Positions 11,153-53,508 of a stretch of DNA of 64,000 nucleotides are shown one piece after another (the first letter of the stretch is position 1; every line of letters starts with the position of its first letter). The notes under the pieces were generated by a model that did not search any database, was not told where the DNA came from, and saw only the letters and a program-made list of their open reading frames with translations. The position numbers and the translations under genes are program-made. This DNA comes from Ashinkailepas kermadecensis (taxonomy: Eukaryota > Arthropoda > Thecostraca > Neolepadidae), in contig JAOTOM010004784.1 of assembly GCA_034440615.1 (NCBI GenBank), positions 248,001 through 312,000 on the forward strand, written 5' to 3'.

Positions 11153-12604
11153 TTAGTAACCGGCGTAAATCACGGGTAATTTAAGTTCTAAGAGGAATTT
11201 AAAAAGTCGTCCCGAGTGAACAATGTCAGACTCATCCCCTAATACTTCCCGAAGCGAGACAGAGGAACGTCCGAAGTGACGTCTCCGTTCGTGGACAAGC
11301 CTGGGACATGAAACTAAAACGAGTCGTATTGACATTAGCGCGGTGCACCTCGGGCACAGGGGCGCCTCGTCACCACCCAGAAGATACCGGTGCGTCGCAT
11401 AGGTATGTCCCACACGCAGACGACACAGTGACACCTCGTGGCGTCTGTTTCGGTGCGAGGATGAAGCCCACTCACCAATATAGGGCTTGACATTTCTCAG
11501 CTTGTTTGTTAACGATTCCCAGCTTGCCTGCCACTTCCTCAGAATGAATCCCTTCACATCTGAGTAAAAGTCCCTAGCAGGAAGGGAGAGGGAGCGTGCG
11601 CACGGAGCCCGTGTACCTCGTTTCGCTGCAGCATCTGCTGCCTCGTTTCCGGATTCCCACGTGGCTCGGTATCCAACATAGGACAATCGTTTTCCCAGCG
11701 CAGGGCAGATAGAAAAGCCTACATAAAATAACTTGTGCAAGTGGGTTCGATGGGTAAAACGTACCAGAGTGGTAAGACTACTTAGTGAATCGGTGGAATA
11801 TATGCAGCATTTCATCACATGTTTCAATAAAACTCAGTGCCTTGTCTAGGACAACCAACTCAGATGTATACACAGTGCCGGCAAGGAGAAAGTCTTGACA
11901 GTTGTGCCCATCACAAACGCACACCCAACACCAGACTCTGTCTTCGACCAGTCTGTGTAGGTATCTGTAAAATGGCGGTAGGAAGACGTCACTTCCAGCC
12001 CCCTAAGTCTAAATTCCTCAGGAACCACTTCGCACTTTTTGAGACTGGACAGCGATACGTCAATATCGGGTGAGGTGAGAGTCCAGGGAGGGACTTGCAT
12101 CGATCCGATGCGAATCACACCGCGTAATCTTATATCGCTGTCCTCCAACAGAGCACGAATTCTAGCACAGAAAGGAGCAGAGCTAACAGGACGTCTTCTT
12201 CTGCACATAGCCAGAGTGCTTCGCGAAAACACTGAACGGTATGTTGGGTGATTTGGGAACTGACGCAACTTAAGTGCATAGCGCCTACCGAGCAGTTCCC
12301 GACGCATAGAGAGGCACGGTGTGTTGGCATCCACCAACAGACCGACAGTTGGTGAGGTGCGAAAGGCACCAGTGATAATACGAAGCGCCGTATGATGTAT
12401 TGTGGTGGTGGTGAATTGGTGTTTAGGGGCGCGTCGACTGCAAAGGTCATTTTGCGCCCATGTATGATGTATTGTATCCAGTGTTCTTTTTGTGGTCGAA
12501 GCTGCACCGTCGTAGATGAAACATGCATAATCGAGTCTGGACAGAATCAGGGAGCGATATAACCGCAGCAGGGTTGATATATCGGCACCATGAGGTTCGT
12601 GCAA
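11153..12604 (-). pseudogene. 5'-truncated, broken LINE copy (RT C-terminal part, RNase H)
   Basis: Homologous to ORF2 of the 1202-7569 element but clearly diverged: the thumb region after the RT (YRSLILSRLDYACFIYD, TIHHTALRI), RNase H pieces (STDSLSSL, GNEAADAAAKRG) and the terminal CCHC finger (CPRCTALMSIRLVLVSC). The frame breaks near 11830 and elsewhere. At 12404-12461 a short tail element is inserted and has duplicated the codons for TIHHT. I see no hairpin tail at the 3' end, so either it is lost or this family lacks one. Confidence 0.85.
12404..12461 (-). mobile_element. Short tail element M1
   Basis: A 58-bp insertion inside the broken LINE, flanked by a perfect 14-bp duplication GTATGATGTATTGT (12390-12403, 12462-12475). 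Read on the minus strand: hairpin with outer stem GGGCGC/GCGCCC and inner stem GAC/GTC, then a CTAAACACC-type tail. The host reading frame shows the duplicated peptide TIHHT on both sides, which proves insertion. Confidence 0.93.
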
Positions 12605-12669
12605 CCACCTTCAACAAGCATTGACGTTTCTCCTTCCTGTAATAATAATAGTCATGCTGTTTGCGCATG

Positions 12670-15216
12670 CTTGTGGCTTATCCATGTTTCACAATACAAC
12701 TAACCACGTAGGGTCAGAAGGGTTAATTGAGCTCGTAATGTCACCCACCGGCTCCAAGCCTCCCATGCGATGAGCAACGTGCCATCTTCTCACACAGAAA
12801 CACCAGACGGCGTTACTTCTACATTTATTATATAACGTCGCTCAAGCGAATTTAGACCGGACAAAGCACGTTCTCCGACCAGAAGCGGGAGGCAGTGCCG
12901 GATAAAACACGCGTTCCCAATACCAGAGATCTCCGAGAAAGCTGATTCGTGGGGCCAGTGGGCTAGCCGGAGGCCAGTATTTAAAACTAGCTGTTACAAC
13001 ATGCAGCACTGACAATCGATCCGAATATAGGTAGCCTGAGCAAAACAGCACCTGGTAGCCAAGCTAGTGTACGGCTGCGGGCTTCATATACACATTTGCG
13101 CAACACGATAAAACGACCACGTCACCGCCATACTAGATAACATGCTACAATTTAAGGCGAGGAAAGACAAAAAAACAAGACGAGCAATTCAACGACATCC
13201 AAACACACTCGGGTCAGAGTCAGCAGACCACCCAAACAGCAGCTCCAGACAACCTCAACTACGTCACCAGACGACCAGAACTCCAGGTCACTACGCGAAT
13301 GATTAACTCATGTCACCAGGCGACTACGCAACTCCAGGTGATCAGACGACTGCTCAGCTCCGTGTGAGACAATATAACTCCCGGGTATAGGCAAAGCTCT
13401 CCGGCACCGGCAACTACGAGTTTGCCGACTTCAGCACGGACGTAGATCGGCTCTTGGCCATGGCTCCATTCCTGCAACGAATGCAATGCTCTTTAACATT
13501 GCTCTTATGAGATAATATAGGATACGCAAATTTCATACATGAGAAAAGCTAAAACTAGTAAGGACCACGATAGTAGCAAAACCAGTTGTTAAAATTGGTT
13601 ATGCTGGCCACCACTGAAATGATACTGAATGAAATGCCTTCGTTTCTAGATAATGCATTAATAGTACGAGCACTAACTTTCTGATAAAGTAAGTGGAAAA
13701 GGTGCGCAGAATATTATTACAGCCACATTTGTCGGCTGCTCTTCCAACATGAATTCCTGTTGCGTTTCACGTGAATTTAATGGGCGCTCCAAGTCTGGCA
13801 GATATGACTTAATATGAACTGAAACAGGGTGGAACAATATAAAAAAACTTTAAAAACCACCGACATCAAAACCCAGCAAGTGCCAGACATGAAAGTGCAT
13901 CGATAAATTTCCCGGCACATTGCGAGTACCATCGGGATTCATTGTATTTTAATACAGGTAATCTTTCAATCAGAGGTTTTCCAAATGTTCTAGTCTTTTT
14001 CCGACGCTTAAAATAATTCGAGTTTGATAAGCTGTAACAAAACAATGACAATGCGGAAATCAATACATGATACACACGACCTTCATTCCCGGAGTTATTG
14101 CAGTGGTCAAGTCGAAAAATACTGCACCAGTGGCGAAACACTCGACGTTTCGGCACCCGGCCACCATCAGGAGTATACGAAAACGTACGATTCACAGCAT
14201 TTATCAAAGACAGACTAATGAAACATGGGAAGATTCCTTCACAGGCAAGATGATTGATACGTGAAATGATGTTTGTTGTTGGAAGAACGTGATTAAAGGC
14301 CAGTCTTGCATCTACACATTCCATGGATGTTTCAGTTCTAACCGCATAAAAAGAGAGCTCGCGGCCAACATAAAACACAGACTACAAAAGGTTCCCCTCT
14401 AACCATACTCCCATACGAGAAGAATCCGTATCCTGAGATTTCCGCGTCACATGCAGACCATTTGTGCTGGAGGTCTGAAGCTCACCAACCTTTCCAAACC
14501 ATCTTTTTGCACAGCTTGTGAAAAGCAATACGTTCTGGCCCTGCCAGGGGTGGCTCCATGGAGAGGGGGGATTTAGGCAGGAAACTGCATGTGCCACATA
14601 TTCCCGTATCCGGTATTATGTTGTATTGAAGAACGATATGCGAAAGGTGGCTGTTTATTTCGTTCGTCCACCATATGTGCTTCATTGCTGTTTCAGAAAA
14701 GCCACCAGGAGCTGCTCAGCGAGGCCAAATTATTTGGGGATGACTTCTGAAAGTTTAATCGCAAAAATCCAAGGGGTATTTTAATGCGGCCAATGCCAAG
14801 TAGCCCTCCATTGGGAATTCCTGATTAATCTCAATGATCAATGACGGCTCCACGGGTAATTATGTGTGTGTGAGGGGGGGGGGGGTACATCCGCCGTTTT
14901 CGATGCTGTTGTCGTTAAGGTAGCATGACATGCATGCGCTGAATATAAATAAAACTTTAAACATGGCATGTGTGCACCGCAAATCCTAATCCAGTGTTTG
15001 GGACCTGTTGCTGAAAATATTGCTTCGATCACAAAAAGTAGCATGGTTATACGAAGTTATATTCAATGACTGGTCCATTTCATATTAATACGCTCGTCCG
15101 ACCCCATTCATTGCAGCTATTCAATTCACCAAGTAAAACTGCTAACTTGCCCGATATTATTTTAGAACAAGCTAGATAGATACTCAGGCGGTCAAATTAA
15201 GCCATTCGAGCTCAAG
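12670..15216. other. Intergenic DNA, mostly unrecognised
   Basis: No supported gene. The minus-strand frame at 13866-14378 contains TPDGGRVPKRRVFRHW. The matching nucleotides near 14140-14170 (GATGGTGGCCGGGTGCCGAAACGTC on the minus strand) resemble the flanks of Penelope-like elements as I remember them, so 13980-14300 may be a Penelope remnant (weak). A G run lies at 14874-14884. Confidence 0.3.
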
Positions 15217-18200: not shown

Positions 18201-21200
18201 TCAGCGGCCGCGGGCCGTGGCTGTGTGGCGGTGAGACCGTTTGCGGGCGGTGCTACGCTGAGCTCAGAGGCGGCAGGCAGTGTCCGTGTACAGTTCAGAC
18301 CAGGTGCCGGCTCGGCCGTTGGCGGCTCGCGCGCGACGTTCATCGCCTCAAAGCTTGTCTCGAGTTTGTGCGACAGGCTCGACTGTCGAGCGGGCTCGCC
18401 GAGTGGATCTTCACCGGGAACGACCGAGGCTGTACGCTCCTGCGAGGATCCGAGCTGCGGTGACGGCGCAGGCTCTCGCGACGGTTTGACAGGTGGTGTT
18501 AACCATCGGGGAGAGCTGGCAGGTGATGAGGCCTCTCGTGACAGTTCCGCCGGCGGAGTGGCCTCTCGTGACAGTCCCACCGGTGGAGTAGCCTCTCGTG
18601 ACAGTCCCGCCGGTGGAGTAGCCTCTCGTGACAGTCCCGCTGGTGGAGTAGCCTCTCGTGACAATCCCGCCGGTGGAGTAGCCTTTCGTGACAGTCCCAC
18701 CGGCGGAGTAGCCTCTCGTGACAGTCCAGCCGATGGAGTGGCCTCTTGTGACAGTCTCGCCGGTGGAGTGGCCTCTCGTGACAGTCCCGCCGGCGGGGTG
18801 GCCTCTCGTGACAGTCTCGCCGGCGGAGTGGCCTCTCGTGACAGTCCCGCTGGCGGAGTGGCCTCTCGTGACAGTCCCGTCGGCGGAGTAGCCTCTCGTG
18901 ACAGTCTCGCCGGCGGAGTGGCCTCTCGTGACAGTCCCGTCGGCGGAGTAGCCTCTCGTGACAGTCTCGCCGGCGGAGTGGCCTCTCGTGACAGTCCCGT
19001 CGGCGGTGTGACCTCCCAACACGACCTGATGACGGGCACGGCGACAGCACACACATTCACCTCAGACATGTCCCGGTCGCGCTCGTCCCTGACCCCGTAG
19101 AACAGGCTGGCCGACGAGTCGTCACAGTCAGCCGGTCTCTGCGACGACCGTCCGTTATCGCCGGCTGGCCCTGGATCGGCACAGATGAGTGCCTCGTCCG
19201 TGGCGCAACAGCCCAGCGTGGTGTCGCTGGGCGGCAGCACGGTCTCCAACATCGGCTCCGCCGCGTAACTGGCGTCCAGCGGCGCACACTGATCCGCCGA
19301 GACAGCATCGGCAGCGGCGACGGCTGGGGCGTGTGATGATGCCCCAGAGACGGCGGCACCGGCGGGGACGGGGTCAGGTGATGGCGTGCCGGGGACGGCG
19401 GTACCGCTGGGAACTGCACTGTGTAACGAGCTCTGACTCGGCGTGCCGCCCGGCGTATCGCTCAGAGTGTGGGACGGCGTGCCGACACGGACCGGTGTCT
19501 GTGCCAGGACGCGCGACAGTGTCGGGGTGCGACACGAGGCATGGGCTGGTGTGTCAGAGGCAGGTGGTGCGGACCGTAGCAGAGAGCCGATGGCATGGCG
19601 CACAGACTCGGCCGGCACGTAGCTGGTGCCTGTGAGCCTCAGAAGCGCGGTGACGTCATAGCTGGGCTGACCGGGACTGTTCGCTGGAGGAGACTGTTGG
19701 TCCGCCCAGCACACCTCCTTCTGGCCCTCCACCAGTCCCACCACCTCCTGTCGGCCGAAAACGGCGTCACAACAGCACAGATCCACAGCAATACGTCATC
19801 AGATGTATCGATGCAATTATATGCAGCCAACAAGAGTTCGTTAGATGCCAAATTTATGGGACGTGTGTAGTGGCGCTGTGGCATGCGCAGGTCTCAGATT
19901 GCACTATGTACATGCATGCAAGCTTTGTATGAACAATCTAACGTCTGTATCACCCGCTTCCATGCATGGGCCCTGAATGGTCAGTTTTGATCCATGTACC
20001 ATGCAGGTCAAAGAACTTTATGCATTTGTAATTAGAGAACCTAAGGTAGTTAGTTATTTGGGCTTTAGGGTGCTTCGACCAGAATTGATCATTCGCGCCC
20101 GAGACAGAGACAGACAGACAGACAGACACAACAAAGGAGAGAGCAAATACACACACAAACTGGAGGACGAACAACACCTTTTCTACGGTCGCTCCGGAGG
20201 GCGTCTCTGAAAAACGTTCTTCCCACTGCATGGATGGCCTGAAAGCCCCAAAGTTCCTAGAGCGATTACGGTGTGTGAAATAATTTCGTTATTTTGTGGC
20301 TGTCGTTTTACGTTAGTTTTTTCGTGATAACTGCGTTCCTTCTACGGCTTTGTGTCATGTGAATATATCATATATCCGTTGTGTTATGTGAGTGCATGTG
20401 AAACCGACCCCACCTAGTTAGAACCTGGAGTGGAAAGGGGTTTTTCAAAATAAAATATCTGAAAGTGCTTTAAATCCCGTTGGAGTGTTGTGGTTACTTT
20501 CGTAGCCACAACACTGCACCATCCAGTGAAAATTTGCCAACCTCCAAACAAAAACGTCGCAGGAATTTCGTCGCACGCCGCGCACAATTAGCATATGCTC
20601 GAGGTCTATTCAGTCGACGTTGTCTTCTCCAGCTTCTGGGTGCGAGTCATGCGGCTCCTGGCGGGACGCGCTCGACTAACACCACATGGTCGCGCCACAC
20701 ACTCCTTCCCAAACGCCGACGGTGGCGATGTCGATAAGACGAGCTCCGGCGACCAGTTGCTGACGGCGCCGCCGCTCGATGAGTGAACATCTAGTCATGA
20801 GCCATCATCACCATGACCAGACATTTACCCACCGAACAGCGGACCGAGTCACGATGTTCTGTCGCGTGAAGCGTTACATCGTCCCCAGGCGTTCGAGTTC
20901 AGGCCTAGCGAACTCGCCAGTGCTGGAGTTGGGAGTAAAATAGTGGAACGAGATGATACAGCCCTTTCTTCAGGCAAAAATCAGTCAGTCATCTGCGCCA
21001 AATTCTACACTCCAAACGGTCCGGTCGCATTCCCCTCCGCAAACCATTTCCGGTATGCCCAACAGAATCGTCTGCAGTCGTCGCACCAACAGCTACAATA
21101 GCCAGTCAGCCCAGGTTACATGGCTTGGTGTAGCACCTTCTTCATCTAATATCGTGAATTTAATCCTGAAGATGCCATACCCTTACTTCTGATTGCGTCC

Positions 21201-24200
21201 TGTAGATGAAGCGAATATGAAGGCCTCAGTGCACCGCTTTTGTACGAACAACAATTTCGCACAGCCGTAACGTCCAGCCAACATAACAGTACATTATAGA
21301 TTAGTCCACCCTCAGACCTCGGATGACATCGGCATACACCGAGCGGTGCCGAGTCAGCTGCACTGACCTTGTACTGAGCCTCCAACTTGGGCGAGACGAA
21401 ATCCATGTAGCCGAGCACACGGTACTGCTCGCGGACGGCTGCCACCAGCTGGTCCAACAGCTGGTCCTGAGCGGCCAGCTCGTGCTGCTGCAGCCGACAG
21501 ACCGCCTCCAGGTGGGACGCGTGGACCCGCGCCTCGTCCAGGTGACGCTGCAACACCGGACACAGTTCAGGGGTTAGGGGTCAGTCAGGGATCATGAGTC
21601 AATCAGGGATCAGTCGTCAGTCGGGGATCAGTCGTCAGTCAGGTGTCAGTCGTCAGTCAGGTGTCAGTCGTCAGTCAGGTGTCAGGAGTCAGTCAGGTGT
21701 CAGGAGTCAGTCAGGTGTCAGGAGTCAGTCAGGTGTCAGAAGTCAGTCAGGTGTCAGAAGTCAGTCAGGTGTCAGGAGTCAGTCAGGTGTCAGGAGTCAG
21801 TCAGGTGTCAGAAGTCAGTCAGGTGTCAGAAGTCAGTCAGGTGTCAGAAGTTAGTCAGGTGTCAGGAGTCAGTCAGGGATCAGGAGTCAGCCAGGACTCA
21901 GTGGACATGACTCTCTGCTGTAGACCGCCATGACCACTCAGCTATAAATCACCACTGAATAACAAGCCAGACTAAACAGACCTCAGACTTGGGCGCCAGG
22001 GTTGGCTTGATGATTTTAAACAGAGAGGAAAATGTACAGGCCTTCAAACTTGGAGATAACGATATTTGTCGATAATGGAATAGAACTTCGAGCTTGGTCT
22101 GGCAAAACAAAGCCGAATATAGCATAATGGTTCACATAAGGAAGCAGCAACAAGTATGTGTATTCATAGAACGCTTCAACACCAAAATAATTATGTTTAG
22201 TAGTGATGTTGAATTTAATCCATAAAGAACAAGAACAATCATTCGGACTACCCGCTGCTACGAATCATATCCTATCCTACCTGAATCATCCAATGGTTTC
22301 CCCACTCCCATCCTTCCTTGCTCCTGTATTCAAAGCACCAAGCAAGCTCAAAATATTCCAGTCAAGAAATAGCATACTGCCTTTTTGTTGCTGTCATTGA
22401 TAGGTACACTAGATCTTGGCATCCGATACACCATTTATATATCTTACACTGCACCATATTCCTTATCCCATACACTAGGGTACATGATTGTCAATTAGAT
22501 GATAGGTGCACCGGATCCGGTCCGGAAAAGTATAACTTGCTTCAAAATCTTACAATCTACTTCTTTTCTTACTTTAATTTTCCACTCATTTGCTACCATT
22601 CCAAGATATTTTTATCACGACACCAAAGCTCAACATGGATTGTGATAGTGCACTGCACTCATCGCTAGCGCAAATGGCCAATATTTGGTAGCTTTGTCGT
22701 GAAGACACGAGAGCAAATTGCCGTAAACTCGCCCATTATCAAAGAGAAACATTCATCTTCTGGCAGGAAAAGGGAAATTATTTTCTGGAGAGGACAAAGT
22801 TATAGATTACAAAAAATCAGGACAATCATGTTTTTCCAACCCTGCTCGGGGACCGAACTGAGGATTGAGCTGACCTTGGGACCTACCTTAGTATTGATCT
22901 GACATGTAACTGATCTCAGTGGTGAGCTGGCCGGTGAGGAACTTTAATGTTGAGCTGATGGCCTGACACCAACATCGGTGCTCACCAGGGTTAGAAACAT
23001 GTCTCCTCTCTGGATGTTTAACAGCCAGAACATTGTCCTTTCTGGAAAATAGCTCCTTACAATAGACTAAACACTTCTTTTTGCCAGATGAATGAATAGT
23101 TATTTTAAAAAAACGGCCGCAAACTCATCGTTGTTTCAGAAGCGTGCCCGAAATTGACCGGGAAGTACGGGCAAAAGTGCTCGATATTAGAAACAAACTC
23201 TGAATTGGATTGCCACATTTTTCTCTCGAAATCAATGATTCCAAGAACAAATACAAACCTGCCCGGGACTGACCTTAGTGTTGAGCTGACCAGGGACTGA
23301 CTCAGCATTGACCCATCCTGTGGAATGGCCAGTGAAGGGCCTGTTATCCGGTTCGCAACTGACCTCGATGTTGATCCGACCCGGGACTGACGAGCGTTGA
23401 GCTGACCCGGGGACTGACCTCGGTGTTGAGCTGTGCCATCAGCTGGTCCAGGTGCGGCCCTGCCGGGACCCCGTCCAGCTCAGCGGCGGCGCGGCCGGCC
23501 GCCTCAGTCAGCTGTGTGCGGGCCGTCTCCAGTCGGGGCTGCGAGTCGGCCAGACGGGCGGCCAGCCGCTGCTGCAGCCGGTCGGCGCGGCCGTCGCCCA
23601 GCCGCAGCAGGCCGGCCCGCTTCACACACATGCGGCGCCGGTGCAGCCGCAGCCGCAGCTGGTGCTGCTCGGCGCCCAGCTGCAGCTGGTGCGTCAGCAG
23701 CCGGCGCTGCTCCGCCTCGGCCGTCCGCAGCGCCGTGTAGTCGGCCGCCGGCTGCGGCTCGGCCGGCGGTGGCGCGGGCCGCTCCGCCAGCTGGCCACGC
23801 AGCGTGCTCACCTCAGCACGCAGCTCTTCCACTAGCTTGGCGTACTGAGACACGTGCAGGTCCACGGACACCACGTTGCGCTGCAACTGAAACGCCGACC
23901 AAACCAGTCAAAACAGCACAGCCTGCATCACTCCAGCGCAGTGATAACTTATTCGTGAAATAGGGTGGAATATACCACCTTCTGAGCACTGAATAGACAT
24001 CCTTTCCCAGGAAGTATTGACAGTGCTTACGAAGCCTCCAAGACTCGTTTCTGGGTATTTCGTGTATAAATGGATTAGAGTTTAGGGGCGCATCGACTGC
24101 CAAGATCATTTTGCTTCGTGCATAAATATCATGATTACGACCACCATTACAGATTGTGATACACAAGCATCTTATAGCACAATTCCAGGAACACAGATTA

Positions 24201-27200
24201 TCTATGATGTGGTCTGCTAAACAATGCCATGTGCTGATACCATGGTATTGCAATTGTTATCGTTAGTATAGGCATCCATATATTAAGTGTCTCACAAAGT
24301 AAACGACAAACAAGCACTTTTGAGTGCACTATTGGCTCAAATGTGAGTTTGAAGAACTGAAACGCTATTTTACTTGGCATGCTTCCATGACAAAATTTCG
24401 ACATCCTATTTTACTCATTTCGACATCTCACACTTAACGAAAAAGCATTATTTTAGCACCGCTCCAGCGGTCTCAGAGCAGCCTGACAACACTCCAGGGG
24501 TCTCGGAACAGATACTGAGCTTATAATGGTTTATCACCCAACACAATGACACAGCAGGTGATAGCATTACAGCATACACCCATCAACCCGCAACAGCTGC
24601 CTCAACGGTGACTTCGACAGAGCCACTGAAGGATGGGCGCTAAATGACCTCGTAGTCGGCGCGCCCTTAAGCCCAAATAATCAAGAGCCACTGAGGGAGG
24701 TCGACGCCCACGCACTTGCAGGCACTCACCCGAGTTTTGATGGCCTTGGCGCGGTCGGCGTACTTGAGCGTGTTGTGTGTATCCTCGTAGCTGGCCGACG
24801 ACGGTGTGACGGCCGCGATCATCACCGTCTTGCAGTTGCCGCCGATAGAGTCCTTCAGCAAGCGTGTTAGCTTGGAGTCGCGGTACGGCACGAACTTCTT
24901 GCCGTCGGCCAGCGCGTTGATGCAGCTGCCTGCCAGGTCCAGCTCGGTCAGGTGGAGACACACTCGACATCTCCCAGCATGGTCATTAACAACGCGGATG
25001 ACTCATTACGATCAATGGGTAAACCCATTGACGCCTCAATGGTGTATGGCCGTTGTAAATGAATGACATTCAACACGTGTTAAAGGTGAAATGCACACGA
25101 AGTAAAAGTATGCACTGTACAATGCTTCTACATATTCAGGGTAGCACTAAATGACACGCCCGAAATCCATACTTGCATTTCATCTTTTTTTTGTGATTTA
25201 TGTATTATACAGATTATTATTAAGTTGTGAAGATTTCAAGGGATTGCAATCATGCCATATCAAACCTCAACGTCTCTCCCTCATTGTCCGCCAAGGACTT
25301 TCGTGTAAAAGAAACAGCAGCGATTAACAAAAATCGTTCCACAACCTGAAACAACCAATCAAGCGCGGTCACTACTGTGCACCAGCACCGCAACAGCCTC
25401 CAAATCGGTCCAATTAGTGGCTATCCGCATATCCGTCACGAGCTACGGCCACTCAGTGAACTGAAGGGTGAGCGCGCACCAGTACCGCCAGCAGCGTCAG
25501 CCCAGCACACCCACCGAGCGCCAGAAGGGACCGGTTGATGTTGGCGCCCTCTCGGAAGCGGGCGCCCTTGTGCCCGGTGGCTGAGCCGCGCTCTGATCCG
25601 GCCAGGTCGATCAGCGACAGCTTGGACGTGCGCACGTCGGTAGAGAGGCCGGCATTGCTGGCAGACTGCTTCAGCACCACCTGGCGCGTACGGACAGAGC
25701 TGCGATCCAACTATCGCCCGGCACACAGACAGCGGAGAGCGGACAGGTGCCGCCACCACCCGAGACGCGTCCAACCATTGCCCGGTATACGCAAACAGAG
25801 CGGACAGGTACCATTACCACCTGATGCCCAGTACACGCAAACAGGCATCACCACCACCTGCCCGGTACACACAGACAGAGCCGACAGGCATCACTACCAC
25901 CTGATGCCCAGTACACACAGACAGAGCAGACAGACATCACTACCACCTGATGCCCGGTACACACAGACAGAGCAGACATGCATCACTACCACCTGATGCC
26001 CGGTGCGCAGACAGAACAGACAGGCATCGCTACCACCTGACAGTGATAAATTATTCGTGAGCTAGGGTGGAATATACCACTTTCTGAACACTCAATCGAC
26101 ATCCTTCTCCAAGAATTATCGACATCCTGCTTCGAGATGCGTGCTTATGAAGTCTTCGTATCTCCTTTGGTTCATAAGTATCATGCTCATGCTCTCGATA
26201 AGGGATGGCGATGCACGAACATTAGGGTGTCCCAGAAAATTCAAGATGGTGATACACACTCCAGCACATGACGCCCCGGTTGCCTCTCGTGTGAAAGTAA
26301 ATACTGTAAAAAAAAATTTCATTTCGGCCATATTTACTGGTAGCACAATTAGTCTACTACGTGTTACAGGAGTGAAATCGACCACTTCAAGTAGTGATGT
26401 TTCGATGTTTCTTCAAGTAATGATGCTTCCCGCGACCATCAATTAATGATGTCTTCTCTTCCTCAGATATCTGAAGTGCAATGCCACGTGCTCGGCGGTC
26501 AGAAGATCCGCTTTTTGATCCGGACTCTTCTGAGACCTTTCCCGGGAACAGGCTGCCGTCTCGGAAGGAGGTGTTGGCCGTGTTCTTGTTCCACCATGTC
26601 GATAAGAAGAAGTTCGTCTCGGCAGCCGCTGGCTCCACCACCACCAAGATCCTCGACGTCTGGAAGAAGGCCAACCTCCCAACCTCTGACCCTTCTTACG
26701 TCAAGAAGAAAGTCATGAAGCTTTTCAGCGACTTCAAAACAATCAAGAAGCTGAAGAATCGCACGACAGAGACGGAGGTGGCAAAGCGAGGGATTTTCAA
26801 GGACTCCTTTGAAGACATCTTCGACGTGGCCCACGCGGATGCCCTGACCTCAGGAATACCAGAGGAGGACAAGGAGTTCCTGAGGTCCCAACGTGAAGAC
26901 AGGACGAGCTCTTCAATGGCTGGGGTCGACCAAACTTCAGTGAAGAAGCAGGAACGGGCCCGGCTGAAGAGGGCGCGAGAGGACGAACGACGAGAGAGGG
27001 AGGCCGCAGCTGTATCTTCCATGCTGGCGAAGGATGTCGCTCTGGAGACATCTTCGACGTCGTCATCGTCGACCGAATATGATGATCATGATACGTTCCT
27101 GGGTCCAACGCCTGCAAAATCTCCTTGTCGTCGCCGTCCAGCGAACAAGTTAAACAAGGAGATGACCCTATCCTGGGATCGGGACAACCTGTCGGTTCGG

Positions 27201-30200
27201 GCTGCCACTCGCATTCTGCGTCATTCGCAGCGGCTGCCATCGCTCTTGGCCACAACATCGACGAGCTGACCCTGTCCCGCTCCTCTGTTCACCGCGTTCG
27301 AGTGAAGAACAGAGGAGATCGCGGCTTCGCTGACCCGGGGCACGGAAGTACCCTTGGTCCTCCACTAGGACGGGAAGCTCCTCCCTAACATCACGGACGG
27401 CAAATCCCTGGAGGAGAGGATCGCAGTCTTGGTCACTGGGGAGGACACGGAGGAACTCCTGGGCGTCCCCGTGTCCGCTGACGGAACAGGAAGAGCCGTG
27501 GCCGAGACAGTCTTGAAGCTTGTCCGGGAGAACGGCCTGGAAACCCGCATCGTCGGCATGGGGTTCGACACCACGGCGTCCAATACTGGCCTCGTGCAAG
27601 GGGCGTGTACGCGGATCGAGGGGGGGGGGGCTTCACCGTCCCCTGCTCTGGTTGGCGTGCCGGCACCATGTCTATGAGGTTGCGCTGAAGGACGTCTTCA
27701 AATGCTGCAACGGTCCTTCTTCTGGCCCGGACAACTGGCCCTCTTCAAGAGGCTGCAGACACGATGGCCATTCATCGACCAGAGCAAGGCCAAGCCCTTG
27801 GACACCGACTCTTTGTCGGCCGAGCAGGACACCCGACGGCAGTCCATGATCAACCTCCTGCGCCAGCTCTTGGAGGCTGGATCTCATCCGCGCGAAGACT
27901 ACCAAGAACTGATCCAGCTCTATCTCGCGTTCCTGGGCGGTGACATGCCAAAGTCCTTCAGAGTTCCTGGCGCTTACCACATGGCCCGCTGGATGGCGAA
28001 GGGAATTTACGCCATCAAGATCATGCTCTTCTCCGACCAGCTCGAACTGACCCGTCGGGAAGAGGTGGTGGTGGTGGATTTGTGCTTTAGGGCGCATCGA
28101 CTGCGTTGGTCGGGAAGAGGAGGGAATGATGCAAGTGTCGCTGTTCGTGGCGATGGTGTACATGAAGTACTGGAACGAAGCGACCATTGTCGCCCACGCC
28201 CCGAAGAACGACAAGGACTTCATCCAAGACATCGCGGACTACGGGGATCGGAGCGTGGCCGCTGTCGCCGACCGTACCATGCGCCGACACCTGTGGTACC
28301 TGTCGGATGACATGGTCGGGCTGGCGCTCTTCGACGAGAGAGTGGACGAGAGGGAGAAGATCGCCATCGTCCAGGCCATGAAGACACGACCGGAATTAAA
28401 GAACAGCTCACGACGACTTCAGGGAAAGAATCTCAACCTGCAGGGGCCACTTTCCACCTGGGCAACGGTCCGATCGTCGAACCTCATCAAAGGCCTTCTG
28501 GGAGGGCAGACCTTCCTCGACGAAGATGTGGCGACCTGGCCATCCAACCCCTGTATCAGCTGGCCCGGAAGCGGGTTGCCACCCTCCCTGTGACCAACGA
28601 CGTGGCCGAGCGTGGCATCGCCCTCGTAAAGCGATTCCTCAATCAGCGGACCAAGAGCGAGGAACAGACGCAGTTCCTCCTGAGGACAGTCCCGCTCCAC
28701 ACACGGGCGGTGCCGAAAAAGACAAAGGAGCAGCTGAAGACCAAGGTGGTCAAGGACGTCTAAGACAGCTGAAGAGGTGGTGAAGGGGCCCTTCCGGGGT
28801 CTGGGACTTATTAGCTGATGTTCTGTGTTATTATTATTTTGTCTCTGACCCTCAAGTCTTAGAATAAATTACCTTCTCGTTTTCCCCCTTTTTCCCTCTT
28901 TCGTGACGTTTTCTCTAGAGAAGCAATCATTTTGTGCTACCAGAAAATATGGACGGATTTTGATGAAACTTTTTCTGAATCATTTCCATACATGTACGAG
29001 CAAGGGAGAAGTGTGCTGGTATCGATACCGCCAAGTTGGATTTTCACTATATAGACTTGGGACACCCTAACGAACATTTCGCAATGCAATTTCAGGTAAG
29101 GTGATTAACTGTAATGTGATATGGTACACTTGGTTGGTTATTAGGATTTTGGGGTGCATCAACTGCATTGGTTATACAGCGCCCTGATATGGTATACAAT
29201 TCCAGTTTATAGCATCAGTATTTTTATCGCTATCTAGAATATAGCTCTTCCTAAATTAGGAATCTCAAAACAAATGAAAAAGGTAGTCATAATCACGCCA
29301 TTGGCTCAAATTTGAGTCTTAAAGACATCAAAAACATTTTAAATGACCCTAATTCCATGGCAAATTTCGACATCCTACTGTGCTCGTTTCGACATCTCAC
29401 ACCGAACGAAAAACCATTATTTTAACCCTGCCACCTGATGCCCGGTACACACAGACAGACCAGACAGACATTACCATCTGATGCCCGGTACACGCAAACA
29501 GCGGACAGACATAATTACCACCTGATGCCTGGTACACACAGACAGAGTGGACAGATATCACCAACACCTGATACCCTCCTGGCACACGCAGACAGCGGAC
29601 AGACATCATTACCACCTGATGCCCGGTACACGCAGACAGAGCGGACATACATCGCTAAAACCTGATGCCGACGCAGATAGCGGTCATGTGTCAGGCGGTC
29701 ACCTAGAGGACGCGTTCAACCAACGTCCGGCACAAAAATGTTCAAGGATCATTGGTGTAACAAGAAACATTAAAAACAAAATAAGAAACGTGACAACACC
29801 ACACATTACCTGTCAGCTTTGGGGTCGAAAAACAGTGTCTTCTAGACTTTGCATAGCGATAAGACTAGACACCACGAAATACATGAATTCAACTATTTCC
29901 GTAAGCATTCTAACATGCATGTCTATGAGAAAGGTGATCCAAAATAACTTTTCGTCATATATATATTTTTTTTTTTTTTTGGGGGGGGGGGGGGAAGACA
30001 AAAATAGACATGACCAGTCAATTCAACCTATATAATTTTCTTCAAATAGATCTTCAAGTAGATCCAGCATGTAAAATAAACCTGCTGGCCGCCATGTACG
30101 CACTGCAAACATCTCATGCCAGAGCCCGCGTCCCACCTGAGTCTCCCACGTCCCACCTGGAAGACGGCGTGCGAACGCGAGCTCTCGGCGTTCATGTCCG

Positions 30201-36200: not shown

Positions 36201-37544
36201 TTTCCACACCTCATTGCTCTAAAAATTACACTGCATATAGAGTACTTCATACAAACAGCAATTTTCATGCTGACCAGCATCATCTTTCTTCAAATTCCAG
36301 TGCCTCATAGTCACGAAGATCAGCATAACATTTTTTGCAGCAGTCAAAACTTGCAAGACTGGTGTCCCTTGCAAGATTAAGGCAACTGAAATTTGGAGAT
36401 ATTGATTCATTCAGGATGTCCATATTCAATATGAGGCCACTGATTGGCCATCCAATGTCATGTCACTCAACTTGGATAGTACTGAAATCGAATTCAGGTA
36501 TGACTTCATGATGGACATGATGAACAGCAACATTCTGCATCAGATAGCAGTGTAGAATATACATGACTTTTTGTCATTGACCTGACATATTTAAACCAGA
36601 ATGGTGATTATGCACTCTATCATTTTTGGCATGAAGAAATGCACCAAACTCGGCCTGTCCATTCAATAGGCCAAAAACGCCAGATATTGATCCAATCTCA
36701 GGTCAGTAAGTTTCACCTTGATACAAAGTTCGAGATGTAGTTATTTGCCTGAATGAAAGGACAGCATGATCCGAGTTTAGTGTCTGTATGTAGCAACCAG
36801 ATTTCGAGAAAAAAAAACAGAACGTTCCTGGATCTTTTGCATCAAGAACATTATCTTCTCCAGAAAAGTGCCCTTTCATTTTTCTCAATTGTAAGTTCAA
36901 TGGTGCTGTTTGACAAACTGCTCTGTGATAGTGCTCAAGAATCATCAAAGTGCGAACTGAGATTCTGATGTCACAGGCTTGAAGAAAAACATCCTCTTTA
37001 ATCAATTACTCAGCACTCCATCCACCTGCACCCACATCCAGGATACAAAGCACAAATCCAACCATAGTTGGCAATTTCCCCAAATGGTGACACTGATGAT
37101 TTGATAATTGCTCCTCGACACATCACGATTACCGTCTATATCACTCCAGCAATAAGCTTAGTTAGTTATTTCGGCTTAAGGGCGCGCCGACTACGAGGTC
37201 ATTTAGCGCCCATTCCAGCAATAAGCATTGGATGCAAACACTTGCTGTTATTGAAGGACAGACACATGGGACAACTGTCAAACCAGCACCGCTAGCTATC
37301 CGGGAGCCACCCACTTGTAGTTTCCCTGGCGTTCTCGTTCGTTCTCGGGTCGCACGCGCACCACGACGCGCACGTTGGCTGCGGCTGAGGCGGCGACAGG
37401 GCCGGCGGCGGCCGACGCCGGGTGGCCGGCGCCGCTCACTGTGCGCCGGGCGGACAGCGGCGGCACGCTCGCCTTCAGGCCGCTGCGACGCCGCTGCGGC
37501 CGGTCCGACACCGACAGCCGCTTGATCGTCTTCGTTATGCCCAT
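15217..37544 (-). CDS. KIF18: Kinesin-8 family motor protein (KIF18-like), 13 coding exons
   Basis: Plus-end-directed microtubule motor. Kinesin-8 proteins also dampen microtubule plus ends and help align mitotic chromosomes. Coding exons (high to low): 37544-37315, 36027-35952, 32319-32160, 31095-30941, 30372-30157, 25680-25515, 24929-24730, 23886-23419, 21547-21368, 19747-17511, 16330-16239, 15970-15871, 15253-15217. All have AG acceptors and GT donors, and the phases add up to 1438 residues. Motor domain about 57-400: P-loop GSTGAGKT (160-167), switch I SSRSH (271-275), switch II DLAGSE (304-309). VRVRPEN and FDPRQQD favour KIF18 over KIF19. Neck and coiled coil 401-617; tail from 618 is Ser/Thr/Pro-rich and disordered, making it longer than human KIF18A (about 900). 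The last three exons are the least certain. I see no inactivating change. Confidence 0.92.
15279..15868. repeat. 59-bp minisatellite carrying copies of a splice donor
   Basis: Ten units of 57-59 bp immediately downstream of kinesin exon 12. Each contains the exon-12 end and donor (minus strand GGCCGCCACAG|GTGAGAC or GTGGGAC). The unit nearest the exon has lost the GT (CAG|GAGAGAC). Confidence 0.93.
15871..15970 (-). CDS. KIF18: Kinesin exon 12 (proposed)
   Basis: Encodes [12 protein letters not shown] and [20 protein letters not shown] with strong G/C third positions. Acceptor TGTTGCAG|ACTGGG; donor CGCCACAG|GTGAGA. Its end and donor are the seed of the 59-bp minisatellite that follows. An alternative view is a first exon of a separate gene starting at MADKTKG. 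Confidence 0.6.
16239..16330 (-). CDS. KIF18: Kinesin exon 11 (proposed)
   Basis: Encodes [20 protein letters not shown] then [11 protein letters not shown], a basic Ser-rich stretch. Acceptor TGCTTTCAG|CGCCTC; donor AGGCCTG|GTCAGT. The phase (2 in, 1 out) fits exons 10 and 12 exactly, which is the main argument for it. Confidence 0.6.
17511..19747 (-). CDS. KIF18: Kinesin exon 10: long disordered tail
   Basis: A 2.2-kb exon encoding about 745 residues. It starts [18 protein letters not shown] and is Pro/Ser/Thr/Ala-rich. A 30-bp coding minisatellite (18530-19010) encodes about 16 copies of [14 protein letters not shown] decapeptides. A second, degenerate series (DLNATRTLS type) lies at about 17930-18300. 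TPP and SP sites are abundant, as in mitotic-kinase substrates. Donor CACCAAG|GTGGGT at 17510; without splicing the frame would run to a stop at 17390, a possible alternative end. Confidence 0.82.
18530..19010 (-). repeat. 30-bp coding minisatellite ([10 protein letters not shown] decapeptide)
   Basis: About 16 tandem units of 30 bp in frame in kinesin exon 10. Units vary mainly at the ninth residue (G, R, V or E) and at synonymous sites. The opposite strand is open too because the unit is a multiple of three and lacks stops in several frames. Confidence 0.95.
19748..21367. other. Kinesin intron 9
   Basis: No gene recognised. It holds a (GACA)n run at 20105-20130, an AATAAA-like site near 20450 and a 13-bp hairpin GTGTTGTGGTTAC/GTAGCCACAACAC at about 20485-20516. 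The stretch 20270-20480 could be an LTR-like remnant, but no paired copy exists here. Confidence 0.4.
21368..21547 (-). CDS. KIF18: Kinesin exon 9: coiled coil
   Basis: Encodes [20 protein letters not shown] through [17 protein letters not shown], predicted helical. Acceptor GTTGCAG|CGTCAC; donor TACAAG|GTCAGT, exactly 60 codons. Confidence 0.88.
21575..21905. repeat. 15-bp minisatellite in kinesin intron 8
   Basis: About 20 units of the type GTCAGGAGTCAGTCAG, near-perfect in the middle. It begins about 30 bp upstream (in transcript order) of the exon 9 acceptor. Confidence 0.93.
22845..23418. repeat. Degenerate ~30-bp repeat containing copies of the exon 8 donor
   Basis: Repeated GGGACTGACCTC-GTGTTGAGCTGACC units. 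The plus-strand complement of the exon 8 end and donor (CTGACCTCGGTGTTGAGCTG) is the unit touching the exon, and units decay with distance. Confidence 0.75.
23419..23886 (-). CDS. KIF18: Kinesin exon 8: neck and coiled coil
   Basis: Begins [20 protein letters not shown], matching the kinesin-8 neck, then a 120-residue Arg/Leu/Gln/Ala-rich helical region likely to form a coiled coil. GC content is very high (many CAGC and GGCC runs). Acceptor GTTTCAG|TTGCAG; donor ACCGAG|GTCAGT, phase 0. Confidence 0.9.
23939..24461. mobile_element. hAT-type MITE (non-autonomous relative of the 26041 element)
   Basis: A 523-bp element in kinesin intron 7, starting CAGTGATAAC and ending TTTTAGCACCG. It has a perfect 8-bp target duplication CTCCAGCG (23931-23938, 24462-24469). 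Both ends match the 3.4-kb hAT at 26041. It has no coding capacity and carries a short tail element at 24072-24114. Confidence 0.93.
24072..24114 (-). mobile_element. Short tail element M2
   Basis: A 43-bp insertion inside the MITE, with a 13-bp duplication TTCGTGTATAAAT / TTCGTGCATAAAT (24059-24071, 24115-24127; one mismatch). Its 5' end lies inside the hairpin loop, so it is 5'-truncated relative to M1. Confidence 0.88.
24633..24683 (+). mobile_element. Short tail element M3
   Basis: A 51-bp insertion in kinesin intron 7, with a 14-bp duplication AGAGCCACTGAAGG / AGAGCCACTGAGGG (24619-24632, 24684-24697). Outer stem GGGCGC/GCGCCC, inner GAC/GTC, tail AAATAATCA. Its loop (CTCGTA) matches M7, so the two are a subfamily. 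Confidence 0.93.
24730..24929 (-). CDS. KIF18: Kinesin exon 7: end of motor domain
   Basis: Encodes [59 protein letters not shown]. Acceptor CTGGCAG|GCAGC; donor ACTCGG|GTGAGT. It completes the motor core and leads into the neck. Confidence 0.94.
25515..25680 (-). CDS. KIF18: Kinesin exon 6: switch II
   Basis: Encodes [19 protein letters not shown] and [11 protein letters not shown]. Acceptor GCGCCAG|GTGGTG; donor GCGCTCG|GTGGGT, phase 1. A minisatellite sits directly on the acceptor side. Confidence 0.94.
25690..26032. repeat. Minisatellite in kinesin intron 5 (acceptor side of exon 6)
   Basis: Repeated CACCTGATGCCCGGTACACACAGACAGAG-type units, about 45 bp with internal variation. The same array continues at 29431-29690; the hAT at 26041 split it. 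Confidence 0.88.
26481..28763 (+). pseudogene. hAT-like transposase, frameshifted
   Basis: Begins [20 protein letters not shown], with a Lys/Arg-rich N-terminal part and a coiled acidic/basic stretch. Then [15 protein letters not shown], a catalytic-region segment with [10 protein letters not shown] (a TAG replaces the expected Trp before Asp at about 27368), [19 protein letters not shown], and a C-terminal NDVAERGI like the hAT glutamate motif. It ends KVVKDV with TAA at 28763. Frame changes near 27200, 27620-27700 and 28600, plus a 43-bp insertion at 28066, make it inactive. The family is widespread in invertebrate genomes from memory; the hAT label is backed by the element's 8-bp duplication. 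Confidence 0.85.
28066..28108 (-). mobile_element. Short tail element M4
   Basis: A 43-bp insertion within the hAT transposase frame, with a perfect 12-bp duplication GTCGGGAAGAGG (28054-28065, 28109-28120). It is 5'-truncated within the hairpin loop; the tail is CCACCACCA. The encoded RREE motif is duplicated around it. Confidence 0.92.
29130..29184 (-). mobile_element. Short tail element M5
   Basis: A 55-bp insertion in the right part of the hAT element, with a 13-bp duplication TGATATGGTACAC / TGATATGGTATAC (29117-29129, 29185-29197). Inner stem is AAC/GTT rather than GAC/GTC, a compensatory change; outer stem GGGCGC/GCACCC has one mismatch. Tail AATAACCAACCAA. Confidence 0.93.
29431..29690. 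repeat. Minisatellite in kinesin intron 5, second half
   Basis: Continuation of the array at 25690-26032 (GATGCCCGGTACACRCAGACAG units) beyond the hAT insertion. Confidence 0.85.
29969..29994. repeat. T run followed by G run
   Basis: About 14 T then 13 G in kinesin intron 5. A likely spot for assembly error and a possible G-rich structure. Confidence 0.8.
30157..30372 (-). CDS. KIF18: Kinesin exon 5: switch I
   Basis: Encodes [38 protein letters not shown] and VFQ. Its acceptor (GTGTGCAG|GTATAC) is echoed by several near-copies in the upstream intron, and its donor (CCAG|GTGGGA) by one just downstream. Confidence 0.94.
30830..30891 (-). mobile_element. Short tail element M6
   Basis: About 62 bp, with an 8-bp duplication TTCTCAAT (30822-30829, 30892-30899). 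Outer stem GGGTGC/GCGCCT keeps pairing through two G-U pairs; inner GAC/GTC. Tail AAATAACCAACCA. It lies 50 bp downstream (in transcript order) of the kinesin exon 4 donor. Confidence 0.87.
30941..31095 (-). CDS. KIF18: Kinesin exon 4: P-loop
   Basis: Encodes [18 protein letters not shown], the nucleotide-binding P-loop, through ISVSYVE. Acceptor TGACAG|TGTTC; donor GTCGAG|GTGAGG, phase 0. Confidence 0.94.
31260..31703. mobile_element. hAT-type MITE, second copy
   Basis: A 444-bp diverged relative of the 23939-24461 element in kinesin intron 3, from CAGGAATTAATTATTCGCG to TTTTTAGCACTG. The flanking octamers CCCACGGG and TCCGCGGG agree at 6 of 8 positions, consistent with an old target duplication. 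Confidence 0.8.
32160..32319 (-). CDS. KIF18: Kinesin exon 3
   Basis: Encodes [16 protein letters not shown], then the conserved [19 protein letters not shown] and DGFNCS. Acceptor TTTCTGCAG; donor CAGCG|GTCAGT in phase 1. Confidence 0.92.
33287..34650 (+). pseudogene. Transposase-like protein of unassigned superfamily, one frameshift
   Basis: Starts [20 protein letters not shown]. Features: a Cys-rich stretch [14 protein letters not shown], the likely first catalytic Asp in [12 protein letters not shown], a second in [15 protein letters not shown], and [17 protein letters not shown], a strongly conserved-looking block. About 455 codons. A one-base frameshift and stop at about 34210-34216 separate the two halves; the downstream frame resumes at [16 protein letters not shown] recall proteins with the SDG-QYKN and HGKG-CDG-GG blocks in many invertebrates but cannot name the superfamily. 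Confidence 0.75.
34986..35310. mobile_element. Nested hAT-type MITE
   Basis: A 325-bp element inside the right inverted repeat of the 32559-35921 transposon. Terminal inverted repeats CAGGGGCGGCGGAAG / CAGTGGCGGCGGAAG (14 of 15 match) and a perfect 8-bp target duplication GGTGGGGA (34978-34985, 35311-35318). No coding capacity. Confidence 0.92.
35952..36027 (-). CDS. KIF18: Kinesin exon 2
   Basis: Encodes [18 protein letters not shown] followed by DDNFFFQ, matching the KIF18 segment around VDKHILVFDPKQ. Acceptor CTGCAG|GAATG and donor CCAG|GTACGG. Only 30 bp of intron separate the donor from the right end of the 32559-35921 transposon. Confidence 0.9.
36700..37005. repeat. Interspersed repeat fragment (R-family)
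   Basis: On the minus strand it contains AAAGGGCACTTTTCTGGAGA and the block GATGTTTTTCTTCAAGCCTG. Diverged relatives lie at about 22745-22800, 44420-44510, 49190-49420, 49890-49960 and 53750-54060. It lies in kinesin intron 1. Its type is unknown. Confidence 0.5.
37158..37213 (-). mobile_element. Short tail element M7
   Basis: A 56-bp insertion in kinesin intron 1, with a perfect 13-bp duplication TCCAGCAATAAGC (37145-37157, 37214-37226). Outer stem GGGCGC/GCGCCC, inner GAC/GTC, loop CTCGTA as in M3. Tail AAATAACTAACTAA. Confidence 0.94.
37315..37544 (-). CDS. KIF18: Kinesin exon 1: start codon and first motor strand
   Basis: Begins [17 protein letters not shown] basic N-terminal extension of about 55 residues with an Ala-rich run precedes [15 protein letters not shown], the first beta strand of the motor. 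It ends in phase 2 at AACTACAA|GTGGGT. The long extension before the motor is unusual for KIF18A. Confidence 0.88.
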
Positions 37545-40500: not shown

Positions 40501-40527
40501 ACAAATTGTTTTCTTCAAAAGCAGTTT

Positions 40528-40575
40528 GGTTGGTTATTTGGGTTTAGAGGCGCATCGACTGCGTTGGTCATAAAG
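40528..40575 (-). mobile_element. Short tail element M8
   Basis: A 48-bp insertion with a perfect 15-bp duplication CTTCAAAAGCAGTTT (40513-40527, 40576-40590). It lacks the 5' side of the outer stem; inner GAC/GTC is present. Tail AAATAACCAACC. Confidence 0.94.
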
Positions 40576-40599
40576 CTTCAAAAGCAGTTTAGATTAGGT

Positions 40600-46069: not shown

Positions 46070-46123
46070 TGGGTGCTGCATGACCCTTGCAGTCGATGCG
46101 CCCCTAAACCCCAATAACCAACC
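46070..46123 (+). mobile_element. Short tail element M9
   Basis: A 54-bp insertion with a perfect 13-bp duplication AACTATGCAATCA (46057-46069, 46124-46136). Outer stem GGGTGC/GCGCCC with one G-U pair, inner GAC/GTC. Tail CAATAACCAACC. Confidence 0.95.
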
Positions 46124-50222: not shown

Positions 50223-50640
<418 letters not shown>

Positions 50641-52471: not shown

Positions 52472-53461
52472 GTTAGTGTGTGTTCTTCTTTGCTGTGTTT
52501 GAAAACAAAGATGTCTGATCATTGTTAGAGACTCGATGATCATCATGGATAATTATGTGTGTGCCCCATTTCCTTCTTGTTTGAAAAAAGCTAATCTTTC
52601 CTGGATGCTTCTTTTGGAGCAGGATAGGGAAGTATATGTCAAAGCACGATTTTCACGGGTTGAAGTGACGGTTTTAGCCGCAGTATGGTAGAATTTCCTG
52701 TTCCTCTCCATGTTGCAGAAATTTTCCCTCTCCCTCCCAGTAAATACTGTTTTGGGCTAGATATATGTAGCTTCGACGTTGGACTTTCATGGTTAATAGG
52801 ATCATCTTTATGTCTTGATTAACCTTCCAGGTCATGTCGTATAGATCGTCTTGGTCATTGTCTGGATGCAGTCAGTCACCGACTTTTAGAATCTGGTCGT
52901 GATAATAACGTGAGTGCGTGGTTCAATATCGTTAACATGCCAACTGCAGGCATATTCTAACTCATGGCCAGTATCAAGATCAAAGTCACCGATGAGCAGC
53001 ATAACAAAATTTCCAGATTGTGGGTGGAAAACGACATTGACGTGGAAGGGAGTTCTCCCATCTTTTTATGAAGTGACATTGGAAATTTGCATCGCCACCA
53101 TTATTTTTCACTAAACCACAATATATTCTGAAATCATGTAACTTCTAGTACACCTAGTACACCTAAAATACCATCTAGTACACTTAAAAAATTGATGGAA
53201 GCAAGATCAGTTTTCAGGAATGGCATGTTCATCTCCCAAGCCACAAGTTCAGGGCCTGCAGCTGCAGCTTCGCTCACGGCCAACCAGCGTGGGGTTGGCA
53301 GCGGTAGGCTAATATAAGGCGCCATTCAGGGCGCTGGACGAGCGAAGGCAATAGACGGCTAAGGGGCTCTCCTGCAGGCACATGCTCGGTACCACTCCAA
53401 GACAGGAAATTTGAGGGCCGATCTCAATCGCGCTTTTTTCCGACCCATACAGACATGCATC

Positions 53462-53508
53462 CGCTGTATGACCAACGCAGTCGATGCGCCCTTAAGCCCA
53501 AATAACCA
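53462..53508 (+). mobile_element. Short tail element M10
   Basis: A 47-bp insertion in the NMD3 intron, with a perfect 11-bp duplication AGACATGCATC (53451-53461, 53509-53519). It starts within the outer stem (CGC); inner GAC/GTC. Tail AAATAACCA. Confidence 0.93.

What the first reader, a model, noticed from the sequence alone, without database searches (positions are those of the whole stretch)
12404..53508. Ten ultra-short retroposons (43-62 bp) consisting almost only of a LINE-type 3' tail
Copies M1-M10 (12404, 24072, 24633, 28066, 29130, 30830, 37158, 40528, 46070, 53462) are direct insertions. Each is bounded by an 8-15 bp target duplication; six of these are perfect and at least 11 bp long. 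Three sit inside identifiable older elements. All end in the same orientation-specific tail. Six start exactly at the base of a hairpin, and the rest are truncated within it. A density of about one per 6 kb suggests tens of thousands genome-wide. Such short tail-only units would be far below the usual SINE size.
Basis: partly seen in the sequence, partly recalled or inferred. Interest (0 to 1): 0.88.

Follow-up and report, generated by a model that had tools for sequence, protein, structure and literature searches.

The report
Tail-only LINE retroposons in a barnacle
A barnacle genome carries many roughly 43-62 base inserts that are just the hairpin and tail from the 3' end of a LINE retrotransposon, cut off sharply at the base of the hairpin, which suggests that the LINE machinery often copies a tiny hairpin-ended RNA fragment instead of the whole element.

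Summary
All ten copies (43-62 bp) are direct insertions with 8-15 bp target duplications, and joining the flanks restores the interrupted frame at the two sites tested. The same tail (hairpin, linker, AACC-type repeats) ends a full-length 6.4-kb LINE in the window, and in diverged form two tRNA-derived SINEs. The host is a barnacle relative.

One search of the whole assembly was answered. Of 35 distinct loci with one tail subtype, 26 are tail-only and 9 are longer LINE copies reaching -136 to at least -2,800. None was found ending between about -10 and -135. Of 34 pooled duplication-supported 5' ends, 28 lie within -4..+5 of the outer hairpin base.

Tail-only and long copies are not separate lineages, so these are LINE-derived insertions, not a self-propagating mini-SINE. 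SINE copies with a homologous hairpin are never tail-only (0 of 11). That favours short template RNAs ending at the hairpin over a generic reverse-transcriptase stop. The RNA itself was not seen. Verdict: a new variant of a known kind.

The parts
12404..12461 (-). M1, 58-bp tail-only copy inside LINE B; TSD 14 bp at 12390-12403 and 12462-12475
   Evidence: empty-site check
24072..24114 (-). M2, 43-bp tail-only copy, starts 4 nt inside the hairpin 5' arm; TSD 13 bp with 1 mismatch
24633..24683 (+). M3, 50-51 bp tail-only copy (first base shared with the TSD); TSD 15 bp with 1 mismatch
28066..28108 (-). M4, 43-bp tail-only copy starting 14 nt inside the hairpin; perfect 12-bp TSD at 28054-28065 and 28109-28120
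29130..29184 (-). M5, 55-bp tail-only copy; TSD 13 bp with 1 mismatch
30830..30891 (-). M6, 62-bp tail-only copy reaching about 7 nt upstream of the hairpin; TSD 8 bp
37158..37213 (-). M7, 56-bp tail-only copy; TSD 13 bp
40528..40575 (-). M8, 48-bp tail-only copy starting in the 5' arm; TSD 15 bp
46070..46123 (+). M9, 54-bp tail-only copy; TSD 13 bp
53462..53508 (+). M10, 47-bp tail-only copy starting 3 nt inside the 5' arm; TSD 11 bp
1202..7569 (-). LINE A: full-length insertion with broken frames (RT, RNase H, weak AP-like endonuclease, long ORF1 without a family match) ending in the same hairpin and (AATC)n; 13-bp TSD at 7570-7582 and 1189-1201
8684..8847 (-). SINE1: tRNA-derived SINE with a diverged version of the hairpin tail; perfect 15-bp TSD
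55113..55277 (+). SINE2: second copy of the same SINE; 13-bp TSD with 1 mismatch
20046..20103 (-). tail of another subtype, no TSD found, 5' limit not determined

Best explanation
The ten units are insertions made by the target-primed reverse transcription machinery of RNase-H-bearing LINEs whose 3' end is a hairpin and repeat tail (a stringent-type system by its anatomy). Most insertions of the one subtype examined genome-wide were copied from a short RNA made only of hairpin, linker and tail, whose 5' end lies at the outer base of the hairpin. The most likely source of that RNA is LINE mRNA degraded or cleaved down to the part held by the hairpin or by the bound LINE protein. Shown: LINE-derived tail, TSDs, sharp 5' limit at the hairpin base, empty gap upstream of it, no separate lineage, absence of tail-only SINE copies in the sample. 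Inferred: that the template RNA is already short, and how it is made.
For: TSDs on all ten and empty-site checks on two. The tail ends a full-length LINE. Hairpin on 14 tails: 90.4% of cells paired against 28.7-53.7% when slid by 1-3 columns; covariation score and cells changed on both sides each reached by 1 of 500 shuffles. Of 35 distinct loci of the M2 subtype, 9 have upstream LINE homology (anchored score 45-98) and 26 do not (score 10 or less; null of 150 random pieces: 95th percentile 7, maximum 37). Of the 26, 19 have a duplication of score 8 or more flush at the hairpin, against 18 of 650 mismatched pairs and 0 of 9 long copies. Long copies end at -136, -162, -290 (own TSDs) or reach about -300 and, in five cases, past -1,000. 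28 of 34 pooled ends lie in -4..+5 (minus one end dropped). Tail-only and long copies are not separate by sequence (permutation P 0.49). SINE copies: 0 of 11 tail-only against 26 of 35, Fisher P 1.3e-5; 8 of 9 SINE copies with a resolved TSD are full length, so reverse transcription past such a hairpin is usually complete.
Against: No short RNA was seen; no RNA data were available. The SINE hairpin is diverged, so its LINE partner may be a different LINE and the contrast may not be like for like; only 11 SINE copies were seen. One subtype only was sampled genome-wide by similarity; in the systematic sample across subtypes the split was 6 tail-only with TSD, 4 long, 4 undetermined of 14. Two of those 6 are open to doubt: L021_8732 has a competing duplication further upstream, L023_1722 shares upstream bases with another copy. 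7 of the 26 tail-only copies lack a TSD of score 8 or more, so their 5' limit rests on lack of LINE homology alone. Two of the five covariation measures were not above shuffles (123 and 407 of 500). Copies cut deep inside the hairpin or tail are too short to detect, so the 3' side of the peak is not measured.
Confidence: 0.57

Rival explanations
1. Aborted reverse transcription on full-length LINE RNA: the enzyme, anchored to the hairpin, lets go once it has copied it, or the new cDNA snaps back into its own hairpin, giving ends at the hairpin base.
For: 5' truncation by premature termination is the usual view of LINEs (PMC5389967 section 15). Ends inside the 5' arm (+2..+5, 8 of 34) fit a stop near the end of the hairpin.
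Against: SINE RNAs with a homologous hairpin show 0 of 11 tail-only copies and 8 of 9 resolved copies full length. An enzyme stalled by RNA structure would be expected to stop on meeting the hairpin from its 3' side, not after reading through it (inference).
Confidence: 0.27
2. They are simply the shortest members of an ordinary, smooth 5'-truncation series of LINE copies.
For: Longer truncated copies exist (TSD at -136, -162, -290). In Anolis CR1 and L2, truncation becomes less likely with distance from the 3' end.
Against: No 5' end found between about -10 and -135 among 35 distinct loci, while 26 carry only the tail. Constant-hazard and log-uniform length models failed on the window's ten copies plus LINE A.
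Confidence: 0.06
3. A self-propagating mini-SINE: a few tail-only loci are transcribed and their RNA is mobilised by the LINE.
For: M3 and M7 are nearly identical over the body. In the genome set 20 of 26 tail-only copies have only tail-only copies as nearest neighbours, though tail-only copies are also the majority.
Against: No lineage separation from long LINE copies (P 0.49); one tail-only copy is identical to a long copy over 37 bases. I did not search for a promoter.
Confidence: 0.08
4. Miniature DNA transposons or another non-retroposon.
For: Short, non-coding, TSD-flanked.
Against: TSD length varies 8-15 bp, no terminal inverted repeats seen, one-sided repeat tail, same tail on a LINE and SINEs.
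Confidence: 0.02

Closest known systems
Stringent-type LINE/SINE pairs (UnaL2, ZfL2-1, ZfL2-2, SART1; PMC5135761 passages, PMC4176376 abstract)
   Same: 3' stem-loop plus repeat tail shared by a LINE and a tRNA-derived SINE.
   Different: Here most insertions of the examined subtype hold only the stem-loop and tail.
5'-truncated LINE copies (Anolis CR1, L2, L1; PMC5389967 section 15)
   Same: 3' ends kept, 5' ends missing.
   Different: A sharp limit at the hairpin base and an empty stretch beyond it, instead of a gradual decline.
Short internally deleted elements such as Persaeus, R2 SIDE, TbRIME (PMC6740152 passages)
   Same: Short non-autonomous derivatives of a LINE that depend on it.
   Different: SIDEs arise by internal deletion; these units have no 5' part and are 43-62 bp in the window.
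Bov-A-type units made of a LINE 3' part (recalled, no call)
   Same: Repeats derived from the 3' part of a LINE.
   Different: Longer and treated as SINE families; from memory only.

Membership tests
Non-LTR (TPRT) retroposon | variable-length target site duplications flush with the unit | tested here: met
   10 of 10 in the window; 19 of 26 in the genome set against 18 of 650 mismatched pairs
Non-LTR (TPRT) retroposon | 3' end kept, 5' end variable | tested here: met
Stringent-type LINE/SINE system | LINE and SINE share a 3' stem-loop and terminal repeats | tested here: met
   LINE A, SINE1 and SINE2 tails align and keep the stem, with changes on both sides at 3 of 10 pairs
Stringent-type LINE/SINE system | the LINE protein binds and needs the stem-loop | not testable with these tools
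   needs a cell or binding assay as in PMC4176376 (abstract read)
I-group LINE (name recalled) | RT followed by RNase H | tested here: met
   Pfam RVT_1 and RNase_H
I-group LINE (name recalled) | AP-like endonuclease | tested here: inconclusive
   no Pfam family or PDB chain; weak NCBIfam exodeoxyribonuclease III match, E 0.001, far below its cut-off
I-group LINE (name recalled) | place in the I group on an RT tree | not tested
   no tree was built
SINE | Pol III promoter head from tRNA, 5S or 7SL RNA | tested here: not met
   units start at the hairpin; ARAGORN and Rfam tRNA hits in the window lie only in SINE1 and SINE2
Independent tail-only family | lineage distinct from long LINE copies | tested here: not met
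   permutation P 0.49 on 35 loci over 37 bases
Ordinary smooth 5' truncation | gradual length distribution across the hairpin boundary | tested here: not met
   0 of 35 loci found with a 5' end between about -10 and -135
MITE | terminal inverted repeats and fixed TSD length | tested here: not met

The most novel reading that the evidence does not exclude
LINE mRNA in this barnacle is routinely trimmed to a stable hairpin-tail particle of about 50-60 nt, protected by the hairpin or the bound LINE protein, and this particle, not the full transcript, is the main template for insertion. The LINE's own tail would thus act as a decoy that uses up its retrotransposition, or as a host defence by RNA decay that turns full insertions into harmless 50-base scars.
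Probability: 0.35. Interest if true: 0.78.

Novelty: new variant of a known kind. Interest (0 to 1): 0.62.

Why it matters
Why LINE copies are 5'-truncated is still argued over: enzyme processivity, host repair, or broken template. A family in which most insertions stop at one structural landmark, next to SINE copies with a homologous hairpin that read through, helps to separate these causes and can be tested with RNA sequencing and cell-free assays. Such units are so short that repeat annotation may overlook them (inference); repeat libraries for barnacles are poor (PMC8917513 and PMC8270832 passages).

Tried and rejected
Rejected: MITE or DNA transposon (no inverted ends seen, variable TSD); smooth truncation; separate mini-SINE lineage. 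Led nowhere: scans of viral contigs (one chance match, none, none confirmed) and of prokaryote genomes (none); Rfam for an RNA at the LINE 5' end (none); Rfam and ARAGORN on the window found only the SINE tRNA heads; PDB for the endonuclease piece (none). In the listings of ten paper searches (one search returned none) and the passages read, I saw no report of tail-only LINE insertions limited at a hairpin; only open-licence PMC papers are held, so this is weak evidence of absence.

Corrections on the way: L019_5715, first counted as tail-only (duplication score 10), turned out to be the end of a long LINE copy and was dropped from the pooled ends (35 to 34). L014 and L028 moved from undetermined to long. 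L038 and L043 match at 798 of 801 bases including both flanks and are counted once. The end positions pooled were typed by hand; two were off (M4 typed +16, is +14; L021_8732 typed +20, is +22), which moves neither between groups. L035, L041 and L044 look tail-only with short imperfect duplications by eye but score 7, 7 and 6 and are not counted as supported; L007, L030, L047 and L051 score 4-6. Two further tails inside L008 (358 and 258 in sense) were not pooled. Odds: the main explanation went from 0.58 to 0.57 and smooth truncation from 0.05 to 0.06 when the null maximum and the two doubtful sample copies were written in.
Full report
Setting. The window is 64 kb of contig C4287 in an assembly of 907.7 Mb and 4,689 contigs. 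An NMD3 reading frame in the window is 86% identical to Amphibalanus amphitrite; the next named animal among the 120 proteins listed is at 65%.

Observation. In sense orientation each is part or all of a hairpin GGGCGC...GCGCCC, a linker such as TAAACCCAAAT, and a repeat tail such as AACCAACC. Target duplications of score 8-15 lie flush with both ends in all ten; the chance rate per site is 9.3% at score 8 and 2.6% to 0.3% at scores 10 to 15 (5,000 repeat-masked random sites). Joining the flanks at M1 closes a 24-residue gap in a LINE fragment and raises identity from 53% to 66%; at M4 it lengthens an open frame from 210 to 286 codons. The hairpin is supported on 14 aligned tails: 90.4% of cells pair, against 28.7-53.7% when partners are slid by 1-3 columns. 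Cells changed on both sides (6) and the covariation score are each reached by 1 of 500 shuffles; the number of pairs with such a change (3) and of further pair types (9) are not above shuffles (123 and 407 of 500).

Source of the tail. The same tail ends LINE A on the - strand, which is bounded by a 13-bp duplication at 7570-7582 and 1189-1201 and so is a full-length insertion of 6,368 bp with broken frames. Its RT and RNase H are Pfam matches; the endonuclease piece has only a weak match and ORF1 none. Two tRNA-derived SINEs end in a diverged version of the tail. LINE A itself is unlikely to be the direct parent of the ten: its tail differs at many positions.

Genome set. One DNA search with M2 gave 36 matches in the assembly including M2 itself, a lower bound by the tool's own words. 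I read all 36: M2 and seven others as loci, 28 as 801-base stretches. L038 and L043 match at 798 of 801 bases and count once, leaving 35. The query holds M2 from 4 nt inside the hairpin onward, so it should not favour or disfavour upstream LINE sequence; it may miss copies cut deeper inside the hairpin. Anchored comparison of up to 130 upstream bases with the long copies splits the set: 9 distinct loci score 45-98, 26 score 10 or less. The null of 150 random pieces from the same loci, some of them LINE sequence, has mean 2.9, 95th percentile 7 and maximum 37. Of the 26, 19 have a duplication of score 8 or more flush at the hairpin and 14 of score 10 or more; for mismatched left and right flanks the rates are 18 of 650 and 1 of 650; for the 9 long copies 0 of 9. 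Three long copies have their own perfect duplication further up: -136, -162, -290. The other six were extended: homology or LINE protein runs to at least about -300, -1,070, -1,080, -1,460, -1,900 and -2,800. In five of the six (all but L062) LINE A proteins match, RT and RNase H at 28-52% identity.

Shape of the 5' ends. Counting 0 as the first G of the hairpin, no copy of the 35 was found to end between about -10 and -135; for 7 tail-only copies without a supported duplication this rests on absence of LINE homology. The pooled duplication-supported ends (19 from the genome set including M2, 9 other window copies, 6 from the systematic sample) are 34: 20 in -4..+1, 8 in +2..+5, 3 further upstream (-6, -7, -9) and 3 further in (+10, +14, +22). 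L046 keeps ten bases that match the LINE just upstream of the hairpin, which ties it to a LINE transcript.

Systematic sample. Twenty 10-kb stretches chosen by contig number and position only, all on contigs over 140 kb, hold 21 tails at E below 1e-3: 7 SINE-type and 14 LINE-type. Of the 14: 6 tail-only with duplication score 8 or more (L016, L019_1994, L021_7876, L021_8732, L022_3547, L023_1722; the fourth and last are open to doubt), 4 ends of longer LINE copies (L014, L019_5715, L022_119, L028), 4 undetermined (L015_6963, L022_8203, L025, L026). Six per 200 kb scales to about 27,000 in 908 Mb, with wide error. The tail-only share is thus lower or less certain here than in the M2 subtype.

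Lineage and template. Over 37 bases, the mean distance between tail-only and long copies is 0.137, among tail-only copies 0.138, among long copies 0.123 (permutation P 0.49); L050 is identical to the long copy L045. Long copies are among the nearest neighbours of 6 of 26 tail-only copies. They therefore most likely come from LINE transcripts of several subtypes. The key control is the SINE: its 11 copies in the window, the systematic sample and the loci all carry SINE body against the hairpin; 8 of the 9 with a resolved duplication begin at -108 to -112, the full SINE, and one at -62; of the two unresolved, one has a nearly full and one a truncated body. Against 26 of 35 tail-only in the LINE subtype the Fisher P is 1.3e-5. 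If the enzyme simply let go at such hairpins, SINE copies should show it. The simplest reading is that LINE templates are often already short. The caveat is that the SINE hairpin is diverged and its partner LINE unknown.

Known background. Stringent-type LINEs recognise a 3' stem-loop, and SINE partners share it (PMC5135761 passages; PMC4176376 abstract; PMC3747384 passages). 5' truncation is usually put down to early termination; in Anolis CR1 and L2 its probability falls with distance from the 3' end (PMC5389967 section 15), and inserts of a zebrafish LINE are longer in chicken cells lacking end-joining factors (PMC2666801 passages). Nothing in these passages describes a class limited at the hairpin. 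Short LINE derivatives known as SIDEs arise by internal deletion (PMC6740152 passages). I file the units as LINE-derived retroposons of a stringent-type system, in a variant where the hairpin base is the main 5' limit.

Noticed in passing
L022 (tail at about 1798-1742, minus) and L023:1722-1777: Two tail copies share about 23 bases upstream of the hairpin (95%), while L023 also has a 13-bp duplication at the hairpin; perhaps a tail copy re-transcribed with its flank, or a shared target.
   Followed up: partly
window 49705-49830: Fragment of the SINE arranged as an inverted pair (fold-back) with a variant of the SINE hairpin.
   Followed up: partly
window 11153-12610: Fragment of a second LINE, 42-66% identical to LINE A in protein, hosts M1; I saw no tail of this kind at its 3' end.
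   Followed up: partly
window 7492-7569: G+C-rich 5' end of LINE A with imperfect inverted repeats; no Rfam match.
   Followed up: partly
L045, L050, L038, L048, window tails: Terminal repeats differ between subtypes (CCACC, CATCAT, CCAATCCA, AACC, AATC), in tail-only and long copies alike.
   Followed up: partly
L008 (tail at 358 in sense, minus strand): A further tail-only copy like M3 and M7 with a 14-bp duplication, next to another tail and within a LINE copy; not pooled.
   Followed up: no
window 27678-28763: Open reading frame of unknown nature interrupted by M4.
   Followed up: partly
window 1-530, 15158-15927, 18396-19085, 21513-21944, 50126-50700, 59584-63837: Large tandem arrays (spacings about 20, 59, 30, 18, 2 and 134) that inflate naive TSD nulls.
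   Followed up: no
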